Shown: positions 25,401 through 30,244 of the stretch, piece after piece | Layout of the letters: every line of letters starts with the position of its first letter | Numbering within the stretch: the stretch's first letter is position 1 | From: Argopecten irradians | Taxonomy: Eukaryota > Mollusca > Bivalvia > Pectinida > Pectinidae | Direction: 5' to 3' | Assembly: GCF_041381155.1 (NCBI RefSeq) | Contig: NC_091134.1 | Coordinates: 28,835,540 to 28,899,539, forward strand | Length of the DNA: 64,000 bases | Position numbers and translations under genes: made by a program | The notes under the pieces: model-generated | What the model saw: the letters and a program-made list of their open reading frames with translations, nothing else | Databases searched by the model: none | Told to the model about the DNA's origin: nothing

Positions 25401-28400
25401 TTATACGTACTGTGCTTGTAGCATGCTGGAATAAAGCACAATCAATTTTGTTCAAAACATTGACCTTTACCTTTATTCATGGTCACAGGGTTAAAATTAG
25501 GCTAAAATCTTAAAACAACTTCTTTTCATTAAGTAAAATAAGAGGCCTAAAGGCTTGATATTTACCGTAAGCCTGTAGAATGCTGGGATGAAGGGCTACC
25601 AAATGTATTCAAATGGATGACTGACTTCTATTCAAAGTCGGAGCGGTCAAATAGGCTAGAATATTAAAACAAATTCTTTTCAATAACTAAGTGACATGGC
25701 CTAGAGGCCTGATTCACTATATGAGACCTGATATTGGACCTGTCTTATGCTGGGATGAGGGTTAACAAAGTTTTTTTTTCAAATGATTGACTTGAATTTT
25801 CATTCCTGGTCAATTAGGTTAAAGCATTCAAACAACTTCTCAGGATATAAAGGCCTAATGTATTTAGATATTAGACCTGTAACATGCTGGATGAAGCACT
25901 CTTTCAAGGACATATTGGTAAAATAAATGCTTATAAGAAACCAACAATTTCTTATTAATCCTGCTTCTTTGCTCTGGTCCACCATAACTTGAGTTATCTC
26001 CCTTACCTTATATAAATCCACTGTAGCATTCTGGTTTAGATACAAGCAATATTGACAGTATTAAAATAGTTCATCTTGATGTCATTGTTTTTAGAAGAAA
26101 TATGCATTTACCTAGCTAAGGATGATTTGGCAAACATCAAATGATTGTCAGATGTCCAAGATCTTGTTATGTTGTTAATATTATTCCTCTCTTGTGCAGA
26201 TGTTGAACAAGGAATTCAGTGGCAGCGTTATTCAGAAAGAGGCTCGTGAGGATGGTCAGTTTAACATCACAGTAGAAAATAAATCACCATTATTTAAGTG
26301 AGTATCGTACAATTGTCAGTTAAGTTTACTCTTTTGATACTAATGAAACATCTTCAGGTATCCTTCTACGGAAATGACTGCTATGTTTGTGTGATACACA
26401 AGTTGATCAACGGGGTGAATTTTCTGTGATCATGCACTTATGCTGTACAAAGTCTTAACTTATATATATGTTTTACACTGAAATCACGTAATTCCTTAAA
26501 TTCTTTAAAATGACGCGTTTTGCTATGGCAGTTATAGGTCTTATAGTTATAGGTCAACTGACCAAAAAGTTCAGGATGCTTTGTCTGTCGTCTTGCATTG
26601 TGCGGTGTGTACCGCCTGTAAACTTTTCATAGTTTAAACTTCTCAAGTTCCATCTTTGGGATTGAGCTGACACTTGCCTGAAATTAATTAATCTGACATG
26701 GTCCTGACCAAGTGTTCTTATTTTTGGCATGTGATACAAAATTTAGCATAATTAATATAATCAAAGGGAGATAATGTTAATTCAATTATTAAAGAAAATA
26801 TGTTTGATGTCTTGGGAAAGGACAGCAGATGTCTCGGAAACAAACTTCTTAATATTATACTTTAACAAAGAAAGATATAAGCAAAGAAAGTCTTCATGAT
26901 ATTTAAAATCACTAGATAAAAAAAAGATGAAGGTTAATGGACAACGTCTTTTTGGTTACAGAGGACTGAATAAAGAGCAGACAGTACTACTAACGCATGG
27001 AGATAGTATTGACACAGTCGCCGAGGGTTTCAAGGTCATCGCTAAGTCAGGCAGTCTGATAGCAGGTAGAGTATAGACAAGGTCGTGGAGATCAAGGTTG
27101 AAGGTCATCATTAGTTTGGCAGTCTGATAGCAGGTAGGGTATAGACAAGGTCGTGGAGATCAAGGTTGAATGTCATCATTAGTTTGGCAGTCTGATAGCA
27201 GGTAGGGTGTAGAAAAGGTCATGGAGATCAAGGTTGAAGGTCATCATTAGTTTGGCAGTCTGATAGCAGGTAGGGTATAGGAGATTTCAGAAAAGATTGC
27301 GATGACGTCACACAAAGGTACATCCGGGCGCTCAAAGGTACAACTCCGTTATATCTACACATAAACATAGAGGGAAAACAGCCGCTTGCGATGTTTGTTT
27401 ACATTTAATTGTAATAAATAGTACGACAATCCGAGAACTATTGCGTTATTTTATTTATAAAAAGGGTAAATAAAAACATTTAACAATAATATTTAGATAT
27501 AAACATCTGGTATTTATATATTTTACTCCGTTTATACTCCATTTTCTACCGCCACGAGAAAAAAAACACGGTCGCCATTAGACCTACGTATAAACATTGA
27601 CAGAAGTTACAAAATTGACAGAAACTACAAATTAAATTCCAAGTTTCCCCAAATATTATACTGATATTTTAATAAGCAATTACAGTTTTCTAAGTCTTAC
27701 TTGGTAAAACACCTTACGATGTGTGATTATGACCAAATTAAAATTTGCCTTTGTAGATGCCCAAGCGCACTGCAGCCATTACGTACACTACTGCCGAGAT
27801 CCCGAATTTCGTCATTTTTCATAGTCACAAAATTATGTATTCTGGTTAACTTTTTCGTTAGAAATTTTGGAATTTAGTTTATAACATTCAAATGAGTCAT
27901 TTTATAGTTACTTTTTATCATATTTTTAAACAAAACTTCGAGTATTTTAGAATTCTCAAAGCCGTGCGCAATGTGTCCTGGTCGGCATTTATACATTGTA
28001 GTAATTACGATCTACATTGTAGCTATATTCATAAATCTAAATGTAGTCTATCTAACATGTATTCAAATTATTTAAAAGTAATATCACCTAAATTTGGGAC
28101 TTCCACATAACGGCACATGGAATAAAAGTGATTAAAAAATAAAAAATAAACTCATGAGATTGAACGATTTCACTATTTTATTTTTCGAGATATCGGTAGC
28201 CATACTGTACGTCTACGTACACATACATGTATATCTTCATTTATGTGTAACGGTGGTTTATACCATTCATTTAAAATAATATATACATGGGAAATAACGA
28301 AATATATATATTTTACAAGTACTTATTGAGATATGTGTTGGTAATTACGTATAAATATTATTAATTTCCCAATTATCGGCTGTTGCCCGAGGTGATCTAC

Positions 28401-30244
28401 ATGTACCAGCGAAGCCATGCACACGAGCGGCCGTGGTCTGGCCAGGTGGTTCACATTTCGTTATATTTATATTAAATAGTGTTATGAACAGATTTTTTGT
28501 GTATAACAGAAATATGATACATTGAAATCAATTATCTATTCATAACTTTTTCACAATATGGATTTTCTACGTGTGAACAAAAAGCGGGTACGTGTGACGG
28601 CCCGGCACCGCTTCGCAAGCTGGCTTCAACACAAAATCTAAACAAATATATTTAGCAATAAACAATTGTAAATATAAATGTCTGTAACCTCTGAAACAAT
28701 AAGAAACTATTTTGAAATCAGAATTTGCAAGTATGAAAGTGTATACTTTTGTCAACGTATCGATTGTGTATCAGGGATGTACGTATCTGTTATTGTTTTT
28801 ATTAGTCGCCATACCGTGTTTGTACCTTTGAGGACCCGGATGTAAACTTTCTGTGACGTCACGCCATCTTTTCTGAAATCTAGGGTATAGACAAGGTCGT
28901 GGAGATCAAGGTTGAAGGTCATCATTAGTTTGGCAGTCTGATAGCAGGTAGGGTATAGACAAGGTCATGGAGATCAAGGTTGAAGGTCATCATTAGTTTG
29001 GCAGTCTGATAGCAGGTAGGGTATAGACAAGGTCATGGAGATCAAGGTTGAAGGTCATCATTAGTTTGGCAGTCTGATAGCAGGTAGGGTATAGACAAGG
29101 TCATGGAGATCAAGGTTGAAGGTCATCATTAGTTTGGCAGTCTGATAGCAGGTAGGGTATAGACAAGGTCATGGAGATCAAGGTTGAATGTCATCATTAG
29201 TTTGGCAGTCTGATAGCAGGTAGGGTATAGACAAGGTCATGGAGATCAAGGTTGAAGGTCATCATTAGTTTGGCAGTCTCATAGCAGGTAAGGTGTAGAC
29301 AAGGTCGTGGAGATCAAGGTTGAAGGTCTGGTAACAAGGTTGAATGCCTTAAGTGCCTGGCCAGGTTTGATCAACTCTTTCAGTGGATGTTATTTATCTG
29401 AGTTATGGCCCTTTAATTCACTACAAGTGTCATTTTTCTGCAATTTCTGTGTAATAACTAACAACTGTTCAAACTAATATTGTTAAAACTTAGTAACAAA
29501 GTTAAATGCCTTAAGGGCTTAGCTAAGTTCGATCGCCTCTTTTGGCAGATCTTAATTAGCAGAGTTATCGCCCTTTGATTAAAAAAAAAGGTCATTTTCT
29601 GCCACTTCCGTACAATAACTGTAATAACTATTCACCAATTTTCTTCAAACTTGGTACCAAAGTTAAATGTCTTACTTCCGAATAAGACTTCAGTTTATTT
29701 TTTCATGTTTCAACCAAGGTTAAACCTAACCTCAATAATGTTTACCTACAATATGTCCTGAAAGCGGGGGATGAAAATTCCACGAATTTGCTTGTTCCCT
29801 ATTGAACTGTTGCCAAGTTTATCAGATAATTATCAAGGTCTCTTGTTTCAAAATCAAATCAATACAATATACCTACATTAACTTTATATATCATTTTGTT
29901 TTGAAGGAATGATAACTTCACCCCTTCTCTTCATTCCGGACTTTGCAAAGAAGGGGAAAAAGCGAAAAAGCAGAAAACACGATCCTTCTTCAAACATAGA
30001 TAATGTCCTGGTGGGCAAGCCCTCTGACATATCTTGTTTTGTTTTAACAGGGATATCAAATGAGAGGCAGAAGTTGTATGGTGTTCAGTTTCATCCGGAA
30101 GTAGACCTTACAGAAAATGGGGTCGCCATGTTCCAGAACTTTCTGTTCTCCATAGTCAAATGTGAAGCCAGCTACACAATGGCTAGTAGAGAGAATGCCT
30201 GTATAACATACATCAGGGAGACTGTCAAAGATCATAAAGTTTTG
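22458..30244 (+). CDS. GMPS: GMPS exons 1-6: glutamine amidotransferase part
   Basis: These exons encode residues 1-231. [12 protein letters not shown] opens the class-I amidotransferase fold, [14 protein letters not shown] and LGICYGMQ surround the nucleophile Cys95, LLTHGDS follows in exon 5, and exon 6 supplies YGVQFHPEV with His181 and Glu183. All three catalytic residues are present, so ammonia production should be intact. Intron 5 (27066-30050) is unusual: it holds copies of exon 5's own 3' end and a 1.6-kb transposon. Confidence 0.95.

What the first reader, a model, noticed from the sequence alone, without database searches (positions are those of the whole stretch)
27029..29330. GMPS exon 5 end and its splice donor amplified into a 68-bp array
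The repeat unit spans an exon-intron boundary: about 34 nt of coding exon 5 plus the donor and 34 nt of intron, repeated about 10 times. Each unit keeps a GCAG|GTAGGG donor-like junction, so the real donor competes with a row of near-copies. Seen directly; any effect on splicing is inference.
Basis: partly seen in the sequence, partly recalled or inferred. Interest (0 to 1): 0.75.

Follow-up and report, generated by a model that had tools for sequence, protein, structure and literature searches.

The report
Repeated exon ends in animal GMPS
In an animal gene for an enzyme that makes the RNA building block GMP, the ends of two neighbouring exons, splice signal included, have each been copied several times into the following intron; this kind of repeat is already known from lancelets, and what it does to splicing here is untested.

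Summary
The array is real. In an open 15-exon GMPS frame (22.5-39.2 kb; 5' end unmapped), the tail of the exon ending at 27065 and its donor recur in the next intron as nine 68-bp units (one interrupted) plus a partial one. (1) A 1600-bp transposon-like insert with inverted ends and a 10-bp flanking duplication sits in one unit. (2) The unit is better read as about 60 nt exon plus 6 nt intron than 34 + 34; the inner part is clearly exon-derived, the outer part moderately so. (3) The next exon carries a separate array of the same design at 30188-30483 (57 nt exon + 9 nt intron). Of 15 exons only these two were flagged for adjacent copies, both donor-side. All nine downstream donors outscore the authentic one, the weakest of 14 by a rough matrix; eight of the nine still score below 12 of the other 13 authentic donors. 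Using any copy meets an in-frame stop 11 nt past the normal junction. Lancelet genes have such repeats ('mirages'), with papers suggesting normal splicing. Best reading: tolerated mirage-type minisatellites, a new member of a known kind. Species and transcripts remain unknown.

The parts
26962..27065 (+). GMPS coding exon e5 (104 nt); its last ~60 nt (27006-27065) are the source copy of array A
   Evidence: (PDB 2vxo GMP synthase, E 1.4e-35 for e5+e6 joined)
27066..27280 (+). Array A, left part: three complete 68-bp GT...AG units plus 11 nt of the interrupted unit; donor-like junctions at 27133, 27201, 27269
27281..28880 (+). 1600-bp insert inside one array unit: inverted ends (about 63 nt, 89%), flanking 10-bp direct duplication TAGGGTATAG at 27271-27280 and 28881-28890; non-autonomous DNA-transposon-like element (superfamily not determined)
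   Evidence: the interrupted step is 1678 bp = 68 + 1600 + 10; three of its ORFs without a Pfam match
28881..29328 (+). Array A, right part: rest of the interrupted unit, five complete units, 41-nt partial unit; junctions 28947, 29015, 29083, 29151, 29219, 29287
30051..30244 (+). GMPS coding exon e6 (194 nt); its last 57 nt (30188-30244) plus 9 nt of intron are the source unit of array B
30245..30483 (+). Array B: downstream copies of the 66-bp unit starting at 30254, 30320 (identical to the source unit, donor intact at 30376), 30386 and a partial one at 30452; the 30254 and 30386 units have a broken donor (TTAAGT)
22509..39216 (+). GMPS gene: 15 mapped exons; joined frame open to a terminal stop; the extreme 5' end was not mapped

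Best explanation
Two separate mirage-type minisatellites. A short tandem duplication took the last ~57-60 nt of an exon together with its 5' splice signal (6-9 nt of intron). Slippage or unequal exchange then multiplied and homogenised the copies inside the intron, leaving the original, upstream-most copy as the real exon end. Such arrays can survive at donors because, if the upstream donor is still used, every extra copy is simply intron. Transcripts that use a copy by mistake meet an in-frame stop and should be destroyed. Later a transposon-like element inserted into array A. Shown: anatomy, homology, direction exon to intron (the exon copy encodes residues conserved with human GMPS), stop codons, predicted donor strengths. 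Inferred: duplication mechanism, use of the upstream donor, lack of a function.
For: Exon-to-intron homology at 2 of 15 exons: of 60 exon-by-side-by-strand comparisons (100 shuffles each; flagged if more than 4 points above the best shuffle) only these two were flagged, both downstream and on the + strand. The exon parts upstream of the copied tails show no copies (260 and 254 of 300 shuffles as high). 15-exon frame open. In-frame stop 11 nt after the e5 junction and 42 nt after the e6 junction. Array A units are 64-68 of 68 alike (the 28947 row includes one base of the insert), while the exon tail is 84% identical to them over 37 nt, as expected of concerted evolution that leaves out the edge copy. 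Precedent: lancelet Adh, globin, TnC and PGBD5 genes; the papers say that Adh and TnC mirages give no aberrant mRNAs, that globin RT-PCR suggests regular splicing, and infer the same for PGBD5 (passages).
Against: No transcript was available, so use of 27065 is inferred from protein continuity. The authentic donor is the weakest of 14 by the leave-one-out matrix (2.68) and all nine copies score higher (eight at 4.56, one at 8.86), so upstream choice is not what sequence strength alone predicts. By U1 duplex energy the authentic donor is not the weakest of the gene (-9.5, through a bulged pairing), but the copies are still stronger (-11.2 and -11.5). The outer part of unit A is only moderately supported as exon-derived. 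In array B the unit at 30320 is identical to the exon unit, so there the edge copy is not set apart. Lancelet papers also describe acceptor-side arrays and note that the AG/GT signals could serve as cryptic splice sites, so the tolerance argument is not strict.
Confidence: 0.8

Rival explanations
1. The row of stronger decoy donors acts as a splicing brake: U1 is captured by the copies, a fraction of transcripts keeps array sequence with a stop codon and is degraded, so copy number tunes GMPS output.
For: Copies outscore the authentic donor by two measures; the last copy (29287, 8.86) scores above all 708 other intronic GTs outside the arrays; stop-to-junction distance is 57 nt for the first copy and 125 nt for the second, the two computed.
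Against: No RNA data. Eight of nine copies score only 4.56, below 12 of the other 13 authentic donors and matched by 58 of 708 other intronic GTs. Retention of the donor motif is no sign of selection because the units are nearly identical anyway. Lancelet mirages are reported or suggested not to disturb splicing.
Confidence: 0.1
2. Recursive (ratchet) splicing: each unit begins with GT and ends with AG, so splicing from 27065 to the next AG removes one unit and regenerates a donor.
For: Eight of nine steps between successive junctions are exactly 68 bp, GT...AG; the ninth is 1678 bp because of the insert.
Against: Any duplication of an AG|GT-containing piece gives this by construction. The AG scores 3.10 in an acceptor matrix; 50 of 647 intronic AGs outside array A do as well, and 11 of 14 real acceptors score higher, though 3 score lower.
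Confidence: 0.03
3. Intron gain by tandem duplication (Rogers model): introns 5 and 6 were themselves created by these duplications.
For: Unit contains AG|GT; precedents in other genes.
Against: The 3' ends of both introns are not seen to be copies of the unit: the acceptor-side comparisons for e6 and e7 were not flagged, and the intron 5 acceptor is the highest-scoring of 14 (12.14).
Confidence: 0.02
4. Assembly artefact (repeated mis-joining of one exon end).
For: Tandem arrays are prone to assembly error (general knowledge).
Against: Units carry distinct substitutions, and an insert with a flanking duplication lies in one unit; array B alternates two unit types.
Confidence: 0.05

Closest known systems
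'Mirage' minisatellites of lancelets (Adh3, Canestro et al. 2002, paper not held, known here through citing papers; globins BflGb6/BflGb9, PMC3087553; TnC and PGBD5, PMC3902484; passages)
   Same: Tandem repeat spanning an exon-intron boundary, units with AG/GT signals, unit length in the published range (10-72 bp in Adh3, 150-160 bp in globins, 60 and 108 bp in PGBD5)
   Different: Other gene (GMPS) and unidentified species; two separate donor-side arrays at adjacent exons; copies predicted stronger than the authentic donor; array interrupted by a transposon-like insert. Splicing and length instability not tested here
Internal tandem repeats at exon-intron boundaries of human segmentally duplicated genes (PMC2812944, passages)
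   Same: Minisatellites (on average 30-bp units, 4 copies), some lying at exon-intron boundaries
   Different: There tied to new introns and alternative splicing in recent paralogs, with RNA support; here one metabolic gene without RNA evidence
[quoted passage not shown] PMC4974935, PMC3629103, PMC3443670, passages)
   Same: Tandem duplication of a segment carrying AG|GT
   Different: No new intron is seen: both introns keep acceptor ends with no detected similarity to the unit

Membership tests
Mirage minisatellite (lancelet type) | Minisatellite-like tandem repeat that spans an exon-intron boundary | tested here: met
   for both arrays
Mirage minisatellite (lancelet type) | Many, not all, units carry AG/GT splice signals | tested here: met
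   Array A: 9 of 9 downstream junctions read AG|GT. Array B: the donor GT is kept in 1 of 3 complete downstream units; its exon ends in TTG, not AG
Mirage minisatellite (lancelet type) | Unit length in the published range (10-160 bp) | tested here: met
   68 and 66 bp; range from PMC3087553
Mirage minisatellite (lancelet type) | Concerted evolution inside the cluster, cluster edge excluded | tested here: inconclusive
   Array A fits: units 64-68 of 68 alike against 84% over 37 nt for the exon copy. Array B does not: its 30320 unit is identical to the exon unit
Mirage minisatellite (lancelet type) | Regular splicing is not disturbed | not testable with these tools
   No RNA data; only the open joined frame
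Mirage minisatellite (lancelet type) | Length polymorphism, somatic instability | not testable with these tools
   One assembly only
Mirage minisatellite (lancelet type) | Found in cephalochordates | not testable with these tools
   Species unknown: no held genome; pattern scans found nothing
Intron gain by tandem duplication | Both ends of the intron derive from duplicated AGGT | tested here: not met
   Acceptor-side comparisons at e6 and e7 not flagged; older, decayed similarity cannot be excluded
Recursive splice site | AG|GT preceded by a good polypyrimidine tract / acceptor score | tested here: inconclusive
   Score 3.10; 50 of 647 intronic AGs as high; 11 of 14 real acceptors higher, 3 lower
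DNA transposon (insert 27281-28880) | Terminal inverted repeats and target-site duplication | tested here: met
   superfamily not determined, no Pfam match in three of its ORFs

The most novel reading that the evidence does not exclude
A donor row stronger than the authentic donor serves as a copy-number dial on GMPS: array length sets the fraction of transcripts spliced at stop-bearing junctions, and the second array at the next exon does the same, so an unstable minisatellite tunes output of a basic metabolic enzyme.
Probability: 0.07. Interest if true: 0.75.

Novelty: new member of a known kind. Interest (0 to 1): 0.4.

Why it matters
Splice-site strength alone would predict that the weakest donor of the gene (by the matrix) loses to nine stronger copies within about 2.2 kb. 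If the authentic site is nevertheless used, the locus is a natural test of how position and exon context override donor strength. Two such arrays at adjacent exons of one gene, both at donors, also suggest a survivorship rule (donor-side duplications tolerated, others removed) that can be counted genome-wide; two cases are far too few to show it. If the animal is not a lancelet, it would extend mirages to another group; that is open.

Tried and rejected
Own-genome search: no whole genome is held for this window. Species: two viral-collection scans and two genome-collection scans with exact patterns found nothing, and four repeat strings searched in papers found nothing. The interspersed repeats remind me of bivalve introns, but that is recall and was not tested.

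Array C (48 bp, 37160-37327, starting 15 nt after the e13 end) was tested as a third case and rejected: similarity to exon 13 is at chance (780 of 2000 shuffles).

Intron-gain, recursive-splicing and artefact readings: see rivals. Rfam (0 matches at gathering scores) and ARAGORN (0 genes) gave no RNA gene. Pfam was run on 20 chosen ORFs of the 482 listed, so a second gene elsewhere in the window is not excluded. Ten of the 20 (limit 0.01) had no match. In one search (limit 0.1) the satellite ORF 43348-44730 had 14 families, five of them with whole-protein scores above the curated cut-off (WH1 the best, 2.4e-9), but no stretch passed on its own, so I read them as sums over repeats; three other repeat-rich ORFs had matches below cut-off, also without a passing stretch; one ORF had a sub-cut-off DUF3116 match; five had none. 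Literature: nine answered searches, all within the open-licence library; two with the words mollusc or bivalve returned nothing, which says little. Papers were seen as passages only (PMC3087553, PMC3902484, PMC4974935, PMC3629103, PMC2812944, PMC3443670).

Errors of my own: three donor coordinates (e2, e7, e9) were off by one, corrected; the U1 energies printed for those three are for shifted 11-mers. The donor matrix rests on 13 sites and is rough. In one search, rows other than downstream + were printed only when flagged, so their scores were not seen. Shuffles keep base composition only; those keep dinucleotides.

Full report
Observation. The window holds an animal-type GMP synthase gene on the + strand. 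A tblastn with human GMPS (sequence recalled) marks its exons between 22.5 and 39.2 kb, and the two exons at issue match solved GMP synthase 2vxo at E 1.4e-35 (that 2vxo is the human enzyme is recalled). With boundaries corrected, 15 exons join into one frame with a single terminal stop, and all 14 introns have GT and AG ends. The first mapped exon is partial at its 5' end, so the label 'exon 5' is relative.

Array A. The exon 26962-27065 ends GCAG|GTAGAG. Behind it stand nine further junctions, eight GCAG|GTAGGG and a last GCAG|GTAAGG. Eight of the nine steps are exactly 68 bp, each beginning GT and ending AG; one is 1678 bp. The extra 1610 bp are a 1600-bp insert with inverted ends (about 63 nt, 89%) plus a 10-bp direct duplication TAGGGTATAG. 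Three of its ORFs had no Pfam match, and no second copy was found in the window.

What the unit is made of. The consensus unit aligns with the exon over about 60 nt up to the junction (score 51; best of 2000 shuffles 37), and the exon-against-intron alignment runs from exon nt 43 to 104 against intron +4 to +68. The inner 37 nt are 84% identical. The outer block is weaker: alone against the whole exon it is not significant (143 of 2000). In the collinear position 88 of 20000 shuffles reach it, and among 1524 exon windows the best one is at the expected offset; but 163 of 4891 intron windows also reach that positional score. I therefore favour about 60 exon + 6 intron over 34 + 34, with moderate confidence for the outer part. 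Direction is exon to intron, since the exon copy encodes residues conserved with the solved GMP synthase.

Array B. The next exon (30051-30244) shows the same design: its last 57 nt plus 9 nt of intron form a 66-bp unit repeated behind it. The unit at 30320 is identical to the source unit including the donor; the units at 30254 and 30386 carry a broken donor. TRF also reports it as a 132-bp two-unit repeat (96%).

How general within the gene. Each of 15 exons was compared with the introns or flanks on both sides and both strands, 60 comparisons with 100 shuffles each; only the two donor-side cases were flagged. The last 12 nt of an exon recur exactly in the following intron only for e5 (8 times) and e6 (once) out of 14. 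The 48-bp array behind e13 is not exon-derived (780 of 2000 shuffles).

Consequences predicted. In a leave-one-out matrix the authentic e5 donor scores 2.68, the lowest of 14; the copies score 4.56 (eight) and 8.86 (last). The 4.56 is good but not rare: 12 of the other 13 authentic donors and 58 of 708 intronic GTs outside the arrays score as high or higher; 126 of the 708 reach 2.68 and none reaches 8.86. U1 pairing energies agree in direction (-9.5 against -11.2 and -11.5), though by this measure the e5 donor is not the gene's weakest. Using any copy in A brings a stop 11 nt after the normal junction, which lies 57 nt before the first copy junction; in B the stop comes 42 nt after the junction, 90 nt before the intact copy donor. 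Such transcripts should be targets of nonsense-mediated decay (inference).

Mechanism. I favour mirage-type minisatellites tolerated because the upstream-most copy remains the real exon end. Published lancelet cases report tandem repeats spanning exon-intron boundaries in Adh, globin, TnC and PGBD5 genes, AG/GT signals in many units, length and (for Adh3) somatic instability. The papers say that Adh and TnC mirages do not give aberrant mRNAs, that globin RT-PCR suggests regular splicing, and infer the same for PGBD5 (PMC3087553 and PMC3902484, passages). Those cases include acceptor-side arrays, so tolerance is not confined to donors. The original Adh paper was not held.

Limits. One assembly, no RNA, unknown species. 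Splicing outcome, polymorphism and any function are untested.

Noticed in passing
27281-28880: 1600-bp insert with inverted ends and a 10-bp flanking duplication inside one array unit; no second copy found in the window.
   Followed up: partly
55013-58799 and 58804-62647: Tandem segmental duplication of about 3.8 kb, 97.7% identical, with a 54-bp array near the end of each copy.
   Followed up: no
43351-51228: 7.9-kb satellite of a 126-bp unit (about 62 copies, also 252 and 378 bp registers) with long open frames on both strands; its Pfam matches have no stretch passing alone.
   Followed up: no
14655-17662: About 100 copies of a 30-bp unit, 74% matches.
   Followed up: no
37160-37327: 48-bp array starting 15 nt after the e13 exon end but not exon-derived.
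   Followed up: yes
29331-29674: A 162-bp repeat (2.1 copies) abuts the right end of array A.
   Followed up: no
12981-13485 and 23077-23654: Two diverged stretches (66.7% over 583 columns) of a dispersed repeat.
   Followed up: no
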